From the NCBI GenBank assembly GCA_002474405.1, contig DLQW01000028.1:1-38179 (forward strand): DNA of 38,179 bases, in the 5' to 3' direction. The position numbers and the translations under genes were made by a program. Positions 4,064-38,160 of the stretch are shown piece by piece. The stretch is from Christensenella sp. UBA7597. Its GTDB lineage: Bacteria > Bacillota > Clostridia > Christensenellales > Borkfalkiaceae. The notes beneath the pieces were generated by a model. The model was not told the DNA's origin, made no database searches, and worked only from the letters and a program-made list of their open reading frames with translations. Numbering within the stretch: position 1 is the stretch's first letter; each line of letters begins with the position of its first letter.

Positions 4064-4901
4064 TTTTTTTGCGCTGATCGAACCGACGGCGCCGATGGCG
4101 TACAGCAAAGAATTCTGTTCGCGCTACGGCGCATACGATAACAGCGGGCTGCTTCTGGACTGCGGGAACGAAGCGCACGCGGCGGTATTCGCGCTGGATT
4201 TATCGAAAGACGCGGTGAAAGCGGCGGAAAAAGCGGGCGCGGGCGTGATTGTTACGCATCACCCCGCCATTTATTCGAAACTGGCTTCGCTTTCCGCGGA
4301 CGACGAAACGGGCGGCGCCGTTCTTGCGGCGGCGCGGGCGGGCATCTCCGTGATTTCCATGCACCTGAATCTGGACGCGGCGGAAGGCGGAATCGACGAA
4401 AGTCTTGCGCGGGCGGTACGCGCGGCGGGCAGGAAGGCTGCCGGAAAGGCGGCGGAGCGTTGCGGCGAACCTACGGAAGAAAGGATGTTTACGTTTGCCT
4501 GCGGCAACGGCGCATACGGGCGCGCGTACGACGTGGCGGACGGCGCCGCGGTAAGCGCGGAAGCTTTGAAAGAAGCGCTGGACGGCATGCTTGGAGGCAG
4601 ACATACGCTGCTGTTTGCAAGCGAGGGAAAAACGGTGAAACGCGCGGCTTCGTTCTGCGGCGCGGGCGCCGACGAAGAGGCTGTGGCGTTTGCCGCGAAA
4701 AACGGGGCGGACGCGTTGATTTCTTCCGATTTCAAGCACCATATTTTAAAAGAAGCGGTTGCGCGGGGGATGGCGGTGATTGCGCCCACGCATTACGCTT
4801 CGGAAAATTACGGGTTTTATCAATTTTATTTAAAAGTACAAAAAATCGCCGGAACGGCGGGGGTAGTTTGCGAATATATCGAAAACTCCGCGCTGCTCTG
4901 A
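4050..4901 (+). CDS. Nif3-like dinuclear metal-centre protein
   Basis: This is a member of the Nif3/YqfO (GTP cyclohydrolase I type 2-like) family, whose biochemical role is still unclear. The dinuclear metal ligands are visible: H70-H71 in VTHHP, H105 and D109 in MHLNLD, and the C-terminal HH and HYASE motifs. At about 283 residues it lacks the PII-like inserted domain that makes the Bacillus protein about 370 residues. I chose the GTG at 4050 because the G-run at 4035-4040 is at proper ribosome binding distance; the TTG at 4044 is too close to it. The gene overlaps trmK by 14 bases and is followed after 19 bases by the zinc-ribbon gene, a pairing common in many bacteria. Confidence 0.88.
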   Translation: MKSNDFFALIEPTAPMAYSKEFCSRYGAYDNSGLLLDCGNEAHAAVFALDLSKDAVKAAEKAGAGVIVTHHPAIYSKLASLSADDETGGAVLAAARAGISVISMHLNLDAAEGGIDESLARAVRAAGRKAAGKAAERCGEPTEERMFTFACGNGAYGRAYDVADGAAVSAEALKEALDGMLGGRHTLLFASEGKTVKRAASFCGAGADEEAVAFAAKNGADALISSDFKHHILKEAVARGMAVIAPTHYASENYGFYQFYLKVQKIAGTAGVVCEYIENSALL

Positions 4902-16277: not shown

Positions 16278-18983
16278 ATGAAAAAAACGTTGTGTATCGA
16301 AGGGCTCGACTGCGCGGCATGCGCGGCGGAGCTGGAAGAAGAACTTTCGAAAATCAAGGGAATTTCTTCCGCGTCGGTATCGTTCGTGGCGCAGAAAATT
16401 TTTCTGGAATACGAAAGCGAAGAAGCGCTTGCAAAAGCGGTGGACGCAGCGAATCACTTCGAAGAAGTGAAAGTTTTGCCCGATGAAAACGAAGCGGCGG
16501 CGCCCGCGGGCGGAAAAACCTCGCTGACGATCGAAGGGCTCGACTGCGCGGCATGCGCGGCGGAACTGGAAGAGGAGCTTTCGAAAATCAAAGGGATTTC
16601 TTCCGTTTCCGTATCGTTCGTCATGCAGAAAATCGCTTTGGAATACGCCGACGAAGAGGCGCTTGAAAAGGCGATTGCCGCGGCGAACAATTTCGAAGAG
16701 GTTAAGGTGCTTGCCGACGGCAGAGGAAACGTTTACGCGAAAAACGACGAAAACGAAAGCGGCGCCGCGGGCGAAAAAATCGTTCTGAAAATCGAAAACC
16801 TGCATTGCGCGGGCTGTGCGGCGGAACTGGAAGAAATTCTGAAGAAACACGAAGGGTTATCCGGGGTTTCCGTAGATTTCGTGGGGCAGAAAATCGCGTT
16901 TACCGCAAAGGATAAAGCCGCCGTGAAAAAGGCGATCGAAACGGCGGATAAATTTGAAAAAGTACACGTTCTTAACGCGGAAGAAGCGCTCGGCGAAGGG
17001 CGTAACGCGGAAGATACGAAGAAAAACGCAAAAAAAAGCGCGTTTGCCGAAAATAAAAAGCAGCTGATTCCCATTGTGTTTTCGGCGGTGTTCTTTCTGG
17101 CGGGCGTGTTGCTTGCCAAATGTTTCGATTTCACTGCCACGCGTGTGATTTCGTACGTGTGCTATGCCGTGGCTTACTTCTCCGTGGGCTGGAGCGTGCT
17201 TGTTTCCACGGTGAAAAATATCGCGAAAGGAAGAATTTTCGACGAAAACTTTTTAATGACGATCGCTTCCGTGGGCGCGGTGCTTCTGGGCGATTACGCC
17301 GAAGGCGTTGCCGTTATGCTTTTGTATCAGCTGGGCGAATGGCTGCAGGCGGTGGCGGTGGGTTCGTCCCGTCGTTCCGTAACCGATCTGATGGCGCTTA
17401 AAAGCGAAAGCGCGAATCTGGTGAAAACCGGGGAAAACGGCGAAGAAGAAATAGAAATCGTCGCGCCCGAAAAACTGAAAGTCGGCGACGTGGTGCTGGT
17501 GCGCGCGGGTGAAAAAATTCCCTGCGACGGCGTTGTCGTCAGCGAAAAAGCCGCGCTCGATACGAAATCTTTAACGGGCGAAGCGGAAATCAGAACGCTG
17601 AAAACGGGCGAAGAGGCGCTTTCGGGCTGCATCAACGCGGGCGGCGTGTTCCGTATGCGCATCACCAAAGAATATAAAGACAGCGCCGTGAAGCGCATTC
17701 TCGATTTGATGGAAAATTCCACGGCGCAAAAGGCGCAGAGCGAAAAATTCATCACGAAATTTTCGCGTTACTATACGCCGATCGTTTGTATTTCCGCGCT
17801 TGCTGTGGCTTTTCTGTTGCCGCTGATCGACGTGTTCAAGGGCGCAAGCTACTTTACGAATTTTGCGCGCTGGACGAGCGCGGCGCTCAATTTCCTTGTC
17901 ATTTCCTGCCCGTGCGCGCTGATTATTTCCGTGCCGCTCACCTATTTCTGCGGGCTCGGCGCCTGTGCGAGAGAGGGCGTGCTGGTGAAAGGTTCCACGT
18001 ATCTCGACGCGCTTGCCAAAGCGGAAATCATTGCGCTGGATAAGACGGGCACGCTTACGAAAGGCGATTTTTCCGTAACGAAAGTGCACGAAAACGCGCC
18101 GTTCACGGCGCGCGAAGTGCTGGCGTTCGCCGCCGCGGCGGAAAAGAATTCCACGCACCCCCTCGCCAAAGCGTTTGCCGCCGCAGGTTCGGCGGAAGAG
18201 GACGCTAGAGCGTACGCGGCGCTTTCCGCGGAAGAAATCGCGGGCAACGGCATCAAAGCCGCTCTGAAAGATAAAGCGGGCAACACGTACGAAGTGCTTT
18301 GCGGCAAAGCGGCGTTCTTAAAGAACGAGGGCGTCGCCGTAACCGAAACGCAAAGCGTGTGCACGGTGGTGTACGTTTCCGTCAACGGAAAGTTCGCGGG
18401 CTGCGCTGAAATCGGCGATTCGCTGCGCCCCACCGCGAAGAACGCGATTCGGGAACTGAAAGAAACGGGCGTGAAAAAAGCGGTGATGCTTACGGGCGAC
18501 TCCGCGGGGCGCGCCGAAAGCGTGGCGAAAGAAGCCGGGCTGGACGACTGGAAAGCGGGGCTTCTGCCGGACGACAAACTGACGGCGGCGGAAGAACTTA
18601 AAAAAGAGGGCACGCTCATCTACGTGGGCGACGGCATCAACGACGCGCCCGTGATGGCGTGCGCGGACTGCGCCGTATCCATGGGCAAACTGGGCGCGGC
18701 GGCAGCCGTGGAAGCCAGCGATCTGGTGCTGATTTCCGATGACTTGTCCGCGCTTGCCACGGGCAGAAAAACGGCGAAAAAGACGCAGAGAATCGTTAAA
18801 CAGAACATCGCGTTCTCTATTTGCTGCAAGGTGGCGTTCCTGATCGGTTCGATTGCGAACATTATTCCCTTGTGGCTTGCGGTGTTTGCGGACGTAGGCG
18901 TGATGATGCTGGCGGTACTCAACGCGCTGAGAATGTCGCGCGTGGGACTGAAGAAAGCGGAAAAGAACGGAGAAAAGGCATAA
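16278..18983 (+). CDS. cadA: P1B-type heavy-metal (Zn/Cd/Pb-like) exporting ATPase
   Basis: A 901-residue metal pump of the inner membrane. Three N-terminal heavy-metal-associated domains carry CxxC sites (CAAC, CAAC and CAGC; about residues 1-70, 78-150 and 165-235). The core has the transmembrane metal site C544-P-C546, the phosphorylated aspartate D588 in DKTGTLTKG, the HPLAKA motif and GDGINDAP. The last membrane region has ADVGVMMLAVLNALRM, the Asp-containing signature of the Zn/Cd/Pb (P1B-2) group rather than the Cu group. Regulation is through the upstream arsR and its operator. The gene is followed by rdgB after two bases. The first two HMA domains are near copies at the DNA level. 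Confidence 0.93.
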   Translation: MKKTLCIEGLDCAACAAELEEELSKIKGISSASVSFVAQKIFLEYESEEALAKAVDAANHFEEVKVLPDENEAAAPAGGKTSLTIEGLDCAACAAELEEELSKIKGISSVSVSFVMQKIALEYADEEALEKAIAAANNFEEVKVLADGRGNVYAKNDENESGAAGEKIVLKIENLHCAGCAAELEEILKKHEGLSGVSVDFVGQKIAFTAKDKAAVKKAIETADKFEKVHVLNAEEALGEGRNAEDTKKNAKKSAFAENKKQLIPIVFSAVFFLAGVLLAKCFDFTATRVISYVCYAVAYFSVGWSVLVSTVKNIAKGRIFDENFLMTIASVGAVLLGDYAEGVAVMLLYQLGEWLQAVAVGSSRRSVTDLMALKSESANLVKTGENGEEEIEIVAPEKLKVGDVVLVRAGEKIPCDGVVVSEKAALDTKSLTGEAEIRTLKTGEEALSGCINAGGVFRMRITKEYKDSAVKRILDLMENSTAQKAQSEKFITKFSRYYTPIVCISALAVAFLLPLIDVFKGASYFTNFARWTSAALNFLVISCPCALIISVPLTYFCGLGACAREGVLVKGSTYLDALAKAEIIALDKTGTLTKGDFSVTKVHENAPFTAREVLAFAAAAEKNSTHPLAKAFAAAGSAEEDARAYAALSAEEIAGNGIKAALKDKAGNTYEVLCGKAAFLKNEGVAVTETQSVCTVVYVSVNGKFAGCAEIGDSLRPTAKNAIRELKETGVKKAVMLTGDSAGRAESVAKEAGLDDWKAGLLPDDKLTAAEELKKEGTLIYVGDGINDAPVMACADCAVSMGKLGAAAAVEASDLVLISDDLSALATGRKTAKKTQRIVKQNIAFSICCKVAFLIGSIANIIPLWLAVFADVGVMMLAVLNALRMSRVGLKKAEKNGEKA

Positions 18984-34749: not shown

Positions 34750-35799
34750 TTAAATCGCTTTCAACTGTTCGGCGAACTTTTCCGCGCTTGTGGCATACCC
34801 GAAAATTTCTCTCGGATACGCATTTACCCAATCTTCGCACGCTTTCACGCGTTCTTCCGAAATTTTCGTAAAGTCCGTGCCCTTAGGAAATATTCGCCGA
34901 ATTTCCCGATTCAGTCGTTCGTTACTGCCGCGCTCGCACGAAGTGTACGGGTGGCAATAATAAACGCTTGTTCTTCTTCCTTTGTAAATCGACTTTTCAA
35001 GTCCGACGAAATCGGCAAATTCCGAGCCGTTATCCACGGTGATCGTTTTGAATACTTTACGAAATTTATTTCCGAACCGCCTTTCCAACCGATTCAGACT
35101 TTTCACGACTGTTTCTTTCTTCCGATTCGGCATTTTAACGATAATCTCGTATCTCGTTAATCGTTCGGTGAACACAAGCAACGTATCGCGGGAAAACTTC
35201 TTGCCGACCACGCAGTCCATTTCCCAATGTCCGAACGAATTTCGGCGCAAAACTTCTTCGGGGCGTTTTTCGATACTCGTACCGCGCGGCGCACGTTTTA
35301 CGGTGGCTTTCTCGTAATGCTTTTTCCGTATATTCACGTGTTCCATTCCGATTTTCGTGAAAATCGTTTTTGAATGGATATACCGATACAGCGTGCTTTT
35401 GCTGATAGAAGTGCGGAATAACCCGCGGCGTTTGATTTCGCCGAGTGCGGCGCACGGGGAAATTTTTCCGTTCACCACCCGTTCTTCGATATACCTTACA
35501 AACTCGAAATCGTTGCCGATTTTCAGAGGCGCGCCGTGCGTTGTTTGATTCATAAGATACAAATCGTTCGCTTTATCCGCGCTGTAAATCGTAACTGTTT
35601 TATAATGCCGATCGCCGTAACAATCGGTGGAAGTGCGTACTTTCTGCGTACATTTTCCGCGTTGCAATTCGTTGTAGACGGTGGCAAGGCAAACGCCGAG
35701 TTGTTTCGCAATCGCTTTTTTGTGCAGTCCCGCTTTCAGAAGCGTTTCCAATTCGCGCCGCCGCGTTAAAGTCATATCTTTCGATCCTTTCAATTTCAT
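34750..35799 (-). CDS. IS30-family transposase
   Basis: A complete 349-residue DDE transposase. It has an N-terminal helix-turn-helix (about residues 10-45, LLKAGLHKKAIAKQLGVCLATVYNEL). The catalytic core carries the first aspartate in HWEMDCVVG, the second in TVDNGSEF and the glutamate in SNERLNREIRRIFPKGTDF, all standard for IS30. The first ATG is used because GAGGG lies seven bases before it. No frameshift or stop is visible, so the element may be active. It faces the same way as the next two genes and is separated from the nuclease-like gene by that gene's terminator. Confidence 0.92.
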   Translation of the reverse strand: MKLKGSKDMTLTRRRELETLLKAGLHKKAIAKQLGVCLATVYNELQRGKCTQKVRTSTDCYGDRHYKTVTIYSADKANDLYLMNQTTHGAPLKIGNDFEFVRYIEERVVNGKISPCAALGEIKRRGLFRTSISKSTLYRYIHSKTIFTKIGMEHVNIRKKHYEKATVKRAPRGTSIEKRPEEVLRRNSFGHWEMDCVVGKKFSRDTLLVFTERLTRYEIIVKMPNRKKETVVKSLNRLERRFGNKFRKVFKTITVDNGSEFADFVGLEKSIYKGRRTSVYYCHPYTSCERGSNERLNREIRRIFPKGTDFTKISEERVKACEDWVNAYPREIFGYATSAEKFAEQLKAI

Positions 35800-35889: not shown

Positions 35890-36573
35890 TTACAGCCCTA
35901 ACAGAGGACATAAGCATTTGCCTATGTCGTTCAGATCTTCGTCGGTCATAATTATCACTTTTTTTCCTTTCGATTTATAAATATTCATAACGTATTCCTT
36001 GCTTTTTAAGTATTGTTTGCTTTTCAATTCGTTGTATTCGATATACAGATTATAATCGGGCAGATAAAAATCGGGTTTCAGTTCCTTTTGTTCGTGCGTA
36101 GTTTCGTCCTCGTAGTAAATTCTTTGCTCGTAAACGGTGCGCACGCGTTTTTCCCAAAGCCACGAAAGGATCATATATTCCGCGCGGGAACGTACCTTTC
36201 TGCCGTCGGGTGCGACGATCGTGCAATTTCCGTATTCGTCGAGGATCTGCGTTTCTTTGCAATGCGTTATCCGTATATCCACCGAACGATCTTTATACTT
36301 ATAATAGCACGTTTTGCAGAAATGCTTTCCGTCAGACGGCTCGCCGCAGATAATGCAAGTCAGATCGGAATCATTTTCCGCTTCTTCTTCGACTTCGGGC
36401 GGAACAAAAGCGGATACGGGTTTTTTGCAATCGCATTTCCGATCGGCGAAATGCCATTTTCCGCAATTTTCGCATTTCACGATTTCGCCGTTTTGTTTCA
36501 TTTCGAGATGTTCTTTGCAAAACGGATAATACAAAAATCCGTTTTTGCCGCAAATCACGCAGGGTTTACTCAT
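35890..36573 (-). CDS. Zinc-ribbon protein with PD-(D/E)XK-like nuclease domain
   Basis: A 227-residue protein with no close family I can name. The N-terminal ~105 residues carry several cysteine pairs: C5/C8, C19 with H22, C34/C37, C47/C49, C73/C76 and C86/C89, suggesting two or three small zinc ribbons joined by an acidic linker (about 57-71). The C-terminal half has the features of a PD-(D/E)XK nuclease related to those in Vsr- and UvrD-associated domains: E132 in RSRAEYMILSWL, Y148-E149, P167-D168-F in LKPDFYLP, and E179 in LYIEYNE followed by K184. Function is inferred from fold-level resemblance. GGAGG lies ten bases before the ATG, directly after an intrinsic terminator in the mRNA leader. 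It lies in a mobile region. Confidence 0.7.
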   Translation of the reverse strand: MSKPCVICGKNGFLYYPFCKEHLEMKQNGEIVKCENCGKWHFADRKCDCKKPVSAFVPPEVEEEAENDSDLTCIICGEPSDGKHFCKTCYYKYKDRSVDIRITHCKETQILDEYGNCTIVAPDGRKVRSRAEYMILSWLWEKRVRTVYEQRIYYEDETTHEQKELKPDFYLPDYNLYIEYNELKSKQYLKSKEYVMNIYKSKGKKVIIMTDEDLNDIGKCLCPLLGL

Positions 36574-36591
36574 TTTTCTTCTTCCTCCGAT

Positions 36592-36623
36592 AAAAAAAGT
36601 GCGATACCGAAAGGAATCGCACT
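36592..36623 (-). terminator. Intrinsic terminator inside the nuclease mRNA leader (attenuator)
   Basis: On the minus strand AGTGCGAT pairs with ATCGCACT around a 9-base loop, followed by seven T. The stem begins about 117 bases after the predicted start site and the U tract ends about 150 bases from it, three bases before the ribosome binding site of the nuclease-like gene. Nine bases at 36633-36641 can pair with the loop and stem base (36609-36617), with one G-U, so the leader could switch between terminated and read-through forms. Confidence 0.75.
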
Positions 36624-36740
36624 CAAAAACGTATTCCTCTCATATCTATTCGTTACCACACAAATTCCCGCAAAGGGAAAAGAAGAATACATTTTTAACG
36701 TAAATCTGTACCCTTTGCAAGAATATGGAATTTGTGTGGT
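36592..36740 (-). ncRNA. Structured leader RNA upstream of the nuclease-like gene
   Basis: Starting at the predicted transcription start near 36740, the RNA would open with 14-15 bases (36727-36741) that pair perfectly with 36654-36668. An inner 8-base helix (36711-36718 with 36670-36677) is separated by an asymmetric internal loop, and a small apical hairpin (UACA/UGUA) caps it. A ~30-base linker and the intrinsic terminator follow. The product would be an RNA of ~150 bases with both ends in hairpins. It matches no RNA class that I can recognise from memory. It may be a riboswitch or attenuator leader, a stable small RNA, or an RNA partner of the encoded protein. Confidence 0.55.
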
Positions 36741-36746
36741 AGATAT

Positions 36747-36775
36747 AATATAACACAAACACCGTATAATGTCAA
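36747..36775 (-). promoter_or_regulatory. Sigma-A promoter on the minus strand for the leader RNA and nuclease gene
   Basis: Minus-strand TTGACA (36770-36775) and TATATT (36747-36752) are separated by 17 bases, so the predicted start falls near 36740, exactly at the outer edge of the large inverted repeat. The coincidence of promoter and helix boundary supports a real RNA element. Confidence 0.85.
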
Positions 36776-36843
36776 GAGATAATAAAGGGAGAAAACCGCG
36801 AAAAAACGGAAATTGCGGCGAAGAAAAATATACAGAGAGTATT

Positions 36844-36907
36844 ACGCGACACCTTGCACAGAAACGAGCCGCGCGCTGCGCGCGCGGGCGCAAGGTGTCG
36901 CGTTTTT
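36844..36907 (+). other. Long nested hairpin, terminator-like on the plus strand
   Basis: ACGCGACACCTTGC (36844-36857) and GCAAGGTGTCGCGT (36890-36903) are an exact 14-base inverted repeat. The loop itself contains GCCGCGCGC/GCGCGCGGGC, giving a second stem with one bulge. It is followed by T-rich sequence on the plus strand. No plus-strand gene lies to its left nearby, so termination may not be its role. Directly at its left foot lies GAGTATTAC (36837-36845), one base from the TAGTATTAC nick sequence used by CRESS-type Rep proteins. A replication-origin role is possible but unproven. Confidence 0.6.
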
Positions 36908-37146: not shown

Positions 37147-38160
37147 CTAAGCCACGCGCGGCGGGTTGCAAAGCACGTCTATAATGCGTATCTGACTGTA
37201 TTTCGTTTGGCGCAGTATATCCCGTTCCCAATCAATCACGTTGTCGAACAAAATATATTTTTCTACGTAGTCTTTATATGCCGTGATAATGTTTTCTTCC
37301 GAAAGTTTTTTGCAAATCACGGTGGGTATGCCGCGCGAGTAGCATATTCTTTCGTTCGTCTTGCCGATATATTTTACGATATAATCTACCGTTCTGCCGT
37401 ATTTAAGTTGCATTTCGCCGAGCGGCGTAAAATCGTTGCGCCCGAACGCTTCCGAAAAGAAATCGTTTTCGCGGTACGTCTGCATTTTTCTTTGTGCCGT
37501 GCTGTAATCTTTCTTTTCTTCGATATTGCCAATCATTTCACCGCACGGCACGTAAATCAAGCCGTGAAAATGCAATCTTCCCGTTTCGGGCGCACGCTCG
37601 AATACGCCCATATACCGCCACCCGCGCCGCGTATGCAAGTTTGAAAGGCACTTGCGGAGTTTCTCCCTAAAACTTTCCGCCGTTTGTTTTTTATCGTCGT
37701 ACGTCAGCGTGATAAAATAATTCCAACGGTTTAAATGCGCTTTGCGGCGAAAACGTTTCTTGCGCACGGCAAGATTATGCCGCTTCGCTTTGATTTTTTT
37801 TCCGATAAATTCGTCCGCGTTTTCAAGTTCGGGAAAAAGCGGCATAAGACCGTTTTTCAGAAATTCCGTTAGCGCGCGATCGCTACGTTTATCCGTCAGC
37901 CCCGATTGCATTGCCGTGGCGTAAAGACTATCGAACATATAGTCGATTTCTTCTTTCTTATGTCCTTTGTTCTTCCGCGCGCTTTGGCTTTTAAAACACT
38001 TCGTAGCGATAAAAGAGCCGCCGTCGTGGTATATCTTATAATAGCAATCTTCCGTCAGAACGGGGCGCGGCGCGTATCTGTCGTTCTCGAAAAAGTACGG
38101 GAAAAACGGGTTGTTCGTTTCAAATTCTTCGTCGATCGGGGTATATGCGGCTGGTTGCAT
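37147..38160 (-). CDS. HUH-type rolling-circle replication initiator protein
   Basis: A 337-residue Rep protein of a plasmid or single-stranded-DNA phage. Motif I is FITLTYDD (residues 149-156). Motif II has the metal-binding pair H197-F-H199 in GRLHFHGLIYV. Motif III has Y260-IVK-Y264, giving the catalytic tyrosine for nicking DNA and forming a covalent 5' link. This combination fits the G2P/ORF2-type Rep family of integrated plasmids and microvirus-like elements, and the YxxK pattern also resembles CRESS-DNA Reps. The ORF is complete, with AAGGA before the ATG at 38158-38160. Upstream sequence is outside the window, so partners such as a capsid or mobilisation gene cannot be checked. Confidence 0.85.
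   Translation of the reverse strand: MQPAAYTPIDEEFETNNPFFPYFFENDRYAPRPVLTEDCYYKIYHDGGSFIATKCFKSQSARKNKGHKKEEIDYMFDSLYATAMQSGLTDKRSDRALTEFLKNGLMPLFPELENADEFIGKKIKAKRHNLAVRKKRFRRKAHLNRWNYFITLTYDDKKQTAESFREKLRKCLSNLHTRRGWRYMGVFERAPETGRLHFHGLIYVPCGEMIGNIEEKKDYSTAQRKMQTYRENDFFSEAFGRNDFTPLGEMQLKYGRTVDYIVKYIGKTNERICYSRGIPTVICKKLSEENIITAYKDYVEKYILFDNVIDWERDILRQTKYSQIRIIDVLCNPPRVA

What the first reader, a model, noticed from the sequence alone, without database searches (positions are those of the whole stretch)
36571..36775. Structured leader RNA with an intrinsic attenuator in front of a zinc-ribbon nuclease-like gene
Seen in sequence: a good minus-strand promoter (TTGACA-17-TATATT), a start point at the edge of a perfect 15-base inverted repeat, an inner 8-base helix, and an intrinsic terminator whose U tract ends three bases before the GGAGG of the next gene. 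A 9-base stretch (36633-36641) can pair with the terminator loop region (36609-36617) in a mutually exclusive way. Known regulators of this layout are riboswitches, T-boxes, protein-bound attenuators and type III toxin-antitoxin RNAs. None of their sequence hallmarks (T-box AGGGUGGNACCGCG, tandem antitoxin repeats) is present. Inference: a new attenuator, or an RNA-nuclease pair.
Basis: partly seen in the sequence, partly recalled or inferred. Interest (0 to 1): 0.75.

Follow-up and report, generated by a model that had tools for sequence, protein, structure and literature searches.

The report
Widespread promoter-plus-attenuator RNA in Clostridia
The stretch holds a promoter and a folded RNA leader with a built-in stop signal, and similarly built copies sit in front of many unrelated genes, often surface lipoproteins, in many uncultured Clostridia, which points to an undescribed shared gene switch.

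Summary
The leader at 36592-36740 (-) has the promoter, the 15-bp outer helix, the inner helix and the terminator described. A covariance model built from three relatives, without this copy, recovers it (49.5 bits, E 6e-10).

Iterated models match 202 of 398 genomes of the family (E<=0.01) and 54 of 200 from the order, in 15 families (E<=0.001). In 104 aligned copies 95.4% of pair cells pair against 66.0% in shuffles. Promoter spacing is fixed, so transcription should start at the outer helix.

A chain of mutually exclusive pairings coevolves; control pairings do not. The module is not tied to the nuclease gene: 10 of 40 homologues have it, and it precedes about 53 protein clusters, with lipoproteins common.

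No Rfam family reaches its cut-off, and nine paper searches found no description. Best reading: a new family of multi-copy transcription attenuators with unknown signal. 'RNA-nuclease pair' is not supported. Expression and regulation are untested.

The parts
36747..36775 (-). Promoter TTGACA-17-TATATT with TG before the -10; the -10 ends 7 bases before the first base of P1
   Evidence: ungapped profile over 130 copies: T98% T92% G85% at -35 to -33, T88% G92% at -15/-14, T88 A95 T67 A82 A48 T95% at -12 to -7
36727..36741 (-). P1 5' arm (36740 is the inferred transcription start)
   Evidence: perfect inverted repeat; covariation in the family
36711..36718 (-). P2 5' arm
   Evidence: P2 covariation in the family
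36699..36713 (-). Segment 1 side of the apical P3 hairpin and part of its loop (P3 is weak in this copy and overlaps the P2 arm; bounds read from the alignment)
   Evidence: alignment; P3 coevolution in the family
36680..36698 (-). Segment 2 (B): apical strand UUAAAAAUGUAUUCUUCUU, pairs with segment 3
   Evidence: coevolution test
36670..36677 (-). P2 3' arm
36654..36668 (-). P1 3' arm
36623..36641 (-). Segment 3 (A): GAGAGGAAUACGUUUUUGA, pairs either with B or (36633-36641) with the terminator 5' side
36609..36623 (-). Segment 4 (T5): terminator 5' arm and loop; 36609-36617 pairs with 36633-36641 (antiterminator)
   Evidence: coevolution test
36592..36608 (-). Segment 5: terminator 3' arm (36598-36608) and U tract (36592-36598)
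   Evidence: U-rich tail in 129 of 130 copies
36584..36588 (-). Ribosome-binding site GGAGG, 3 bases after the U tract
   Evidence: sequence
35890..36573 (-). Gene behind the leader: 227-aa protein with N-terminal zinc-ribbon-like cysteines and a C-terminal PD-(D/E)XK/homing-endonuclease-like domain
   Evidence: Pfam only below cut-offs; phage resolvase and homing-endonuclease profiles E 2e-4 and 3e-4; predicted fold mean pLDDT 84.4, Foldseek best RecE E 2.5e-3 and I-Bth0305I catalytic domain E 6.9e-3, TMt 0.65, none at E<=0.001

Best explanation
A portable sigma-A-type promoter plus transcription attenuator, one copy of an undescribed multi-copy RNA family. Transcription starts on the first base of P1 (inferred from fixed promoter spacing). 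The RNA folds a rod (P1, P2) with an apical hairpin (P3), followed by a chain of five segments: 1 (P3 5' strand), 2 (P3 loop and 3' strand, 'B'), 3 (pre-terminator strand, 'A'), 4 (terminator 5' side), 5 (terminator 3' side with U tract). Supported by coevolution: pairings 1:2, 2:3, 3:4 and 4:5. Inferred from their mutual exclusion: when 1:2 holds, 3 is free to take 4 (antiterminator) and the gene is read; when 3 takes 2, terminator 4:5 forms and transcription stops just before the ribosome-binding site. The P1-P2-P3 rod is inferred to receive a signal, a ligand or protein that stabilises P3. What the signal is, is not known. Genes behind the leaders are accessory genes, with lipoproteins common; the zinc-ribbon nuclease gene of this mobile element is one.
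For: Model R1 from three relatives finds this copy at 49.5 bits, E 6.3e-10. 104 copies (102 distinct): 95.4% of cells paired against 66.0% shuffled and at most 54.4% slid; 1091 cells changed on both sides against 300 shuffled; 38 of 38 pairs have such a change, against 30.4 in shuffles. Own against permuted partners over 130 copies, and over 22 dissimilar ones: P1, P2, 1:2, 2:3 and 3:4: 0 of 2000 permutations as good each time. Controls: 2:4 1868, linker:3 124, 1:4 1088 of 2000 as good over 130; P1-5':P2-3' 596 of 2000. 26 copies never used for the model, 24 of them from other families: 2:3 -16.9 against -10.3 kcal/mol with foreign partners, own in the best tenth for 18 of 26; 3:4 -13.7 against -9.1, 17 of 26. 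Fixed promoter spacing, U tail 129 of 130. 102 of 130 have an ORF of 50 aa or more with a ribosome-binding site, median 17 bases after the leader. G-U pairs in 175 of 1022 ungapped terminator cells, as expected of RNA.
Against: No expression data: neither start, terminated RNA nor read-through has been seen. The 104-row alignment was fitted to the structure, so its counts lean that way; the segments were cut from such alignments too. A strict promoter pattern is met in 74 of 130. Pairing 2:3 has a median of 15 pairs with a median of only 6 linker bases on either side, so with P1 and P2 both formed it needs a bend or partial opening of the rod, or acts in trans. The isolated antiterminator is more stable than the terminator in only 13 of 104 copies, and 2:3 plus terminator is more stable than the antiterminator in 104 of 104 if pseudoknot cost is ignored, so an 'on' state must be kinetic or assisted. 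28 of 130 copies have no clear gene behind them. P3 is weak in the window's own copy.
Confidence: 0.78

Rival explanations
1. The same attenuator, but switched by a dedicated RNA-binding protein (as recalled for PyrR and ribosomal protein L10 leaders) rather than by a small ligand.
For: A paired rod with a recurrent AACA after P1 (92 of 130) and a recurrent apical G[GC][UC]A (89 of 130 against 24.5 expected from shuffles) would suit a protein site. Attenuation of B. subtilis rplJL by L10(L12)4 is in the title of PMC4538822, whose text holds 'anti-antiterminator' 7 times (listing; details recalled).
Against: No candidate protein identified; no search for one was made.
Confidence: 0.35
2. A trans-acting RNA loop: terminated leaders accumulate as ~150-nt RNAs whose apical strand B pairs with strand A of other nascent leaders and enforces termination.
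For: A:B complementarity is long (median 15 pairs) and geometrically awkward in cis; some genomes hold several copies.
Against: On average A pairs clearly better with B of its own leader than with those of other leaders, which fits cis action or strict self-recognition.
Confidence: 0.12
3. A static element: a stabilising 5' hairpin and a leaky terminator that only set a low expression level; no signal.
For: No ligand or factor known; the terminator is the more stable choice in most copies.
Against: Alternative pairings 1:2, 2:3 and 3:4 all coevolve, which a static terminator does not need.
Confidence: 0.1
4. Ribosome-mediated attenuation through a leader peptide (trp/erm type).
For: 116 of 130 leaders hold some AUG, and in the window an AUG lies in segment 2; counting any start codon, 76 of 130 have a start, a ribosome-binding-site-like motif and 8 codons.
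Against: Only 29 of 130 have AUG with such a motif and at least 8 codons; AUG in the segment-B region in 60 of 130. Not a clean exclusion.
Confidence: 0.06
5. A DNA-level element, such as an invertible segment between the P1 arms or a cassette recombination site.
For: Perfect inverted repeat; the module is portable: only 131 of 8385 locus pairs share other DNA by blastn at E 1e-4.
Against: No flipped loop in the text scans of 104 copies and held loci or of 130 copies; the one scan match, L202, is the forward form on inspection. Fixed promoter spacing, G-U pairs and a U tail on one strand.
Confidence: 0.04
6. A type III toxin-antitoxin pair: leader RNA as antitoxin, nuclease as toxin.
For: Order promoter, structured RNA, terminator, nuclease gene.
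Against: No tandem repeats; leader before about 53 protein clusters; 10 of 40 nuclease homologues with it.
Confidence: 0.02

Closest known systems
Bacillus subtilis rplJL leader (L10(L12)4) and PyrR-regulated pyr leaders
   Same: Transcription attenuation by a chain of exclusive hairpins (rplJL: title and start of abstract seen in the listing; the chain of hairpins and pyr are recalled)
   Different: One more link in the chain, targets unrelated to each other, multi-copy, fixed promoter; no Rfam leader family reaches its cut-off here (in one search RF00558 L20 leader has 19.3 bits against 58.7)
Transcription-terminating riboswitches (general)
   Same: 5' structured domain, then mutually exclusive antiterminator and terminator before the start codon; two copies in one locus occur
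   Different: No known aptamer matched at its cut-off; the targets share no pathway that I can see; ligand unknown
T-box leaders
   Same: Leader with antiterminator/terminator choice
   Different: No T-box family match
trp-type attenuator
   Same: Serial segments pairing with their neighbours (recalled)
   Different: Five segments; leader peptide not conserved as AUG plus ribosome-binding site
Type III toxin-antitoxin (ToxIN, CptIN)
   Same: Promoter, RNA, terminator, nuclease gene (recalled)
   Different: No repeats; no fixed partner gene

Membership tests
Any Rfam 15 family | Score at or above the curated cut-off at the leader | tested here: not met
   Whole window, gathering: 0 matches. Leader region at E<=10: best 22.5 bits against 73. 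6 and 8 homologous loci at relaxed E: only matches far below their cut-offs overlap leaders, such as FasX 22.5 bits against 100 and ncS025 23.8 against 46. An FMN riboswitch and a tRNA in the loci were found, so the search works
T-box | T-box sequence AGGGUGGNACCGCG and specifier loop (motif recalled) | tested here: not met
   No T-box family in the answers; motif absent in the leader as read
Type III toxin-antitoxin | Tandem repeats in the antitoxin RNA | tested here: not met
   Tandem Repeats Finder on 36540-36830, 0 rows at score 30
Type III toxin-antitoxin | RNA paired with its cognate toxin gene | tested here: not met
   10 of 40 nuclease homologues with leader; about 53 protein clusters behind leaders
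Transcription attenuator (kind) | Intrinsic terminator in the leader before the start codon | tested here: met
   Terminator helix covaries, U tail 129 of 130, median 17 bases to the start codon in 102 of 130
Transcription attenuator (kind) | Conserved competing antiterminator | tested here: met
   Segment 3:4 coevolution, 0 of 2000 permutations as good; independent set -13.7 against -9.1 kcal/mol
Transcription attenuator (kind) | Regulated read-through | not testable with these tools
   needs RNA data
Riboswitch | Direct ligand binding by the RNA | not testable with these tools
   no ligand known
Riboswitch | Conserved 5' receptor domain with invariant unpaired bases | tested here: inconclusive
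   AACA after P1 92 of 130, apical G[GC][UC]A 89 of 130 against 24.5 shuffled, AAUA in the 5' part 92 of 130 against 36 shuffled: recurrent, not invariant
Ribosome-mediated attenuator | Conserved translated leader peptide | tested here: inconclusive
   AUG with ribosome-binding-site motif and 8 codons in 29 of 130; any start codon 76 of 130; no chance expectation computed

The most novel reading that the evidence does not exclude
An undescribed riboswitch class: a small molecule read by the P1-P2-P3 rod sets, through a five-segment relay, a shared switch on surface-lipoprotein, defence-like and mobile-element genes across a whole order of uncultured Clostridia, spread as a ready-made promoter-plus-switch cassette.
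Probability: 0.35. Interest if true: 0.93.

Novelty: new variant of a known kind. Interest (0 to 1): 0.78.

Why it matters
A promoter and attenuator conserved as one unit, several times per genome in some genomes, in front of unrelated accessory genes, implies a regulon and a signal nobody seems to have named in a large group of uncultured Clostridia. The relay gives coevolving pairings that can be tested by simple compensatory mutations, and identifying the signal would explain what switches many surface lipoproteins of these bacteria. It also offers a portable RNA control part.

Tried and rejected
Leader by plain DNA comparison: matches in 13 of 101 genomes (own included), all short except the window itself; most relatives appear only with structure. 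The exact 15-base P1 arm in IMG/VR gave 38 contigs, about chance by my own estimate (no call), not followed. The nuclease in IMG/VR with one sequence: no relative; with an alignment: 2 loci. Apical motif in IMG/VR: one contig, the same as L069. Core leader patterns in IMG/VR: 5 and 3 contigs; the model finds no leader at those places, only one weak match elsewhere (18.8 bits, E 0.06). Phage and plasmid collections: no match to one core leader. Invertible loop: no flipped form. Leader peptide: not conserved as AUG plus site, not cleanly excluded. In one search, filters off, seven relatives outside the training set stood at the top with the window, but L079 (25.1 bits) ranked below one opposite-strand match (27.8 bits), and L109 (G462), which looks like a divergent leader by eye, stayed in the noise (11.6 bits, E 0.9); it has no match and is not counted. 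With default filters L078 and L079 were lost. Rows dropped: of 37 matches, nine opposite-strand ones and two weak own-genome ones (L256, L258; 28.5 and 27.2 bits), leaving 26. Of 30 loci and 80 regions went into (duplicates and short pieces left out). The lipoprotein count rests on a crude text pattern that also flags a few membrane proteins and misses some lipoproteins; its background, 61 ORFs of the same loci, was picked by a stricter rule (100 aa, ATG) than the targets. Papers: (listings only) and passages of PMC8040213; none describes this leader. The supplements of PMC8040213, which reports 3161 candidate motifs, could not be read, so one of them may overlap.

Full report
What is there. 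On the minus strand a sigma-70-type promoter (36775-36747) is followed by a leader with a perfect 15-bp outer helix, an inner helix, and an intrinsic terminator whose U tract ends three bases before GGAGG of the 227-aa gene at 35890-36573. The RNA folds far better than shuffles (z -7.5). Rfam finds nothing at its cut-offs in the window.

Finding relatives. The gene product has zinc-ribbon-like cysteines (Pfam only below cut-offs) and a C-terminal domain related to phage resolvase and homing-endonuclease profiles and to part of some UvrD-type helicases. The predicted fold (mean pLDDT 84.4) has no structure match at E<=0.001; the best are RecE and the catalytic domain of homing endonuclease I-Bth0305I. 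I read the DNA upstream of 40 homologues (the output was cut in the middle, partly re-read). About a quarter showed the same plan: promoter, rod, terminator. With the final model 10 of 40 have the leader; the best of the other 30 is 22.3 bits, E 0.009.

A family of RNAs. An alignment of ten of these leaders, folded by RNAalifold, chose not the rod but a long-range pairing between the apical strand B and the pre-terminator strand A, with 7 of 11 pairs changed on both sides in at least one sequence. A model R1 built from only three near relatives found the window's copy at E 6.3e-10; L100, L141, L078, L089, L088 and L096 also stood at the top, L079 just below one opposite-strand match, and L109 in the noise (filters off). 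A pattern search in 396 genomes had meanwhile matched 5, one of which (G290) is the leader in front of an unrelated membrane-protein gene, between genes that read as tmk and mutY (names from my reading of the translations). Model R2 then gave matches in 202 of 398 genomes of the family at E<=0.01 (strict filters and 8 candidates scored per genome, so copies are undercounted; about 4 genomes would be expected by chance at that E-value, which is itself rough). From the best-scoring matches, with four nuclease loci, I gave 100 sources: every one held at least one copy, 104 in all. In these, 95.4% of cells pair against 66.0% in shuffles and 31-54% when slid, 1091 cells have changes on both sides against 300 in shuffles, and all 38 pairs have at least one such change, against 30.4 in shuffles. 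Model R3 gave 54 of 200 order genomes at E<=0.001, 44 of them outside the family, in 15 families in all. Two genomes show 8 copies each (G290, G291). The window's own genome has a second copy (G000:C37, about 4656-4847; 43.7 bits, though only 27.2 bits, E 0.009) ahead of a GmrSD_N gene, an untypical 87 bases away.

One module. Upstream bases of 130 copies, aligned without gaps at the first P1 base, give TTG at -35 to -33 (98, 92, 85%), TG at -15/-14 and TATAAT at -12 to -7; a strict pattern for both hexamers is met in 74 of 130. Thus the RNA should begin exactly with P1. Outside the leader only 131 of 8385 locus pairs share DNA by blastn: promoter and leader form the conserved unit.

The relay. 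Segments were cut from the alignments and each pairing tested as own partner against permuted partners: 1:2, 2:3 and 3:4 beat 2000 of 2000 permutations, in all 130 and in 22 dissimilar copies. Controls over 130 copies: 2:4 1868, 1:4 1088 and linker:3 124 of 2000 permutations as good (the last is the nearest to a signal; 408 of 2000 in the 22). P1 and P2 behave like true helices, a P1-5':P2-3' control does not. In 26 copies that had no part in the model, 24 of them from other families, 2:3 is -16.9 kcal/mol with its own partner against -10.3 with others, and 3:4 is -13.7 against -9.1. Unconstrained folding keeps P1 in 129 of 130. In the window, 2:3 is 36680-36698 with 36623-36641, 19 contiguous pairs, and 3:4 includes 36633-36641 with 36609-36617.

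Mechanism. By exclusion, 1:2 permits 3:4 (antitermination), 2:3 permits 4:5 (termination). The rod P1-P2-P3 is therefore the likely receiver: whatever holds P3 turns the gene on. This direction is inference. Against it: the isolated antiterminator is more stable than the terminator in only 13 of 104 copies, and 2:3 plus terminator beats it in 104 of 104 if pseudoknot cost is ignored, while 2:3 has little linker; so kinetics, a bend at the 5' bulge, or a factor is required.

Targets. Of 130 leaders 102 have an ORF of at least 50 aa with a ribosome-binding site; these form 53 clusters (a few ORFs may be spurious); 42 of 102 match a crude lipoprotein pattern against 1 of 61 other ORFs in the same loci, chosen by a stricter rule. 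Pfam on 20 of them shows BspA-type leucine-rich repeats (4), GmrSD_N, Mrr_cat, T5orf172, YspA, DUF2130, a LytTR response regulator, an APH-type kinase, RNase_T with BRCT, DUF4236, CotH, zinc ribbon and SHOCT; 4 of 20 have no family. I see no common pathway.

Context of this copy. It lies on what looks like a mobile element, next to a rolling-circle Rep (PF23343) and an IS30-like transposase (phrog_4646); among 14 stretches compared, the transposase cluster spans 7 and the Rep cluster 5, this window included in both. The nearest named relative of a P-type ATPase gene in the window is from Candidatus Scatosoma (Clostridia) at 67%.

Verdict. A real and widely conserved RNA structure with the marks of a transcription attenuator, known in kind but, as far as Rfam 15 and nine paper searches show, not described. 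The signal and the regulation itself are open.

Noticed in passing
window 37147-38160 (-) and 34750-35799 (-): Rolling-circle Rep (REP_ORF2-G2P) and IS30-like transposase (phrog_4646) flank the nuclease gene; probably the edge of a mobile element that runs off the contig.
   Followed up: partly
window 36845-36902: Long G+C-rich inverted repeat (gcgacaccttgc ... gcaaggtgtcgc with an inner GCGCGC hairpin) between Rep and the leader; possible origin or terminator.
   Followed up: no
G000:C37 about 4656-4847 (L257 1411-1602 +): Second copy of the leader in the window's own genome, 87 bases ahead of a GmrSD_N gene.
   Followed up: partly
L182, L213, L224, L265, L272, L201: Two leaders in one locus, starts about 200-290 bases apart in five of these and 1.4 kb apart in L201.
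   Followed up: no
L133 9253-9382 (G462): A divergent leader-like structure below threshold before a homologue of the nuclease.
   Followed up: partly
L125, L127-L133: Shared ~737-aa and ~704-aa proteins of unknown function near the leader and nuclease, each in seven of the 14 stretches; the first matches an unannotated 57-kb phage contig, MT835493 (46%).
   Followed up: partly
L155 1761-1878 (+): FMN riboswitch near a leader copy; served as a working control for the Rfam search.
   Followed up: no
window 16278-18983 (+): Heavy-metal P-type ATPase gene (names given by sources).
   Followed up: no
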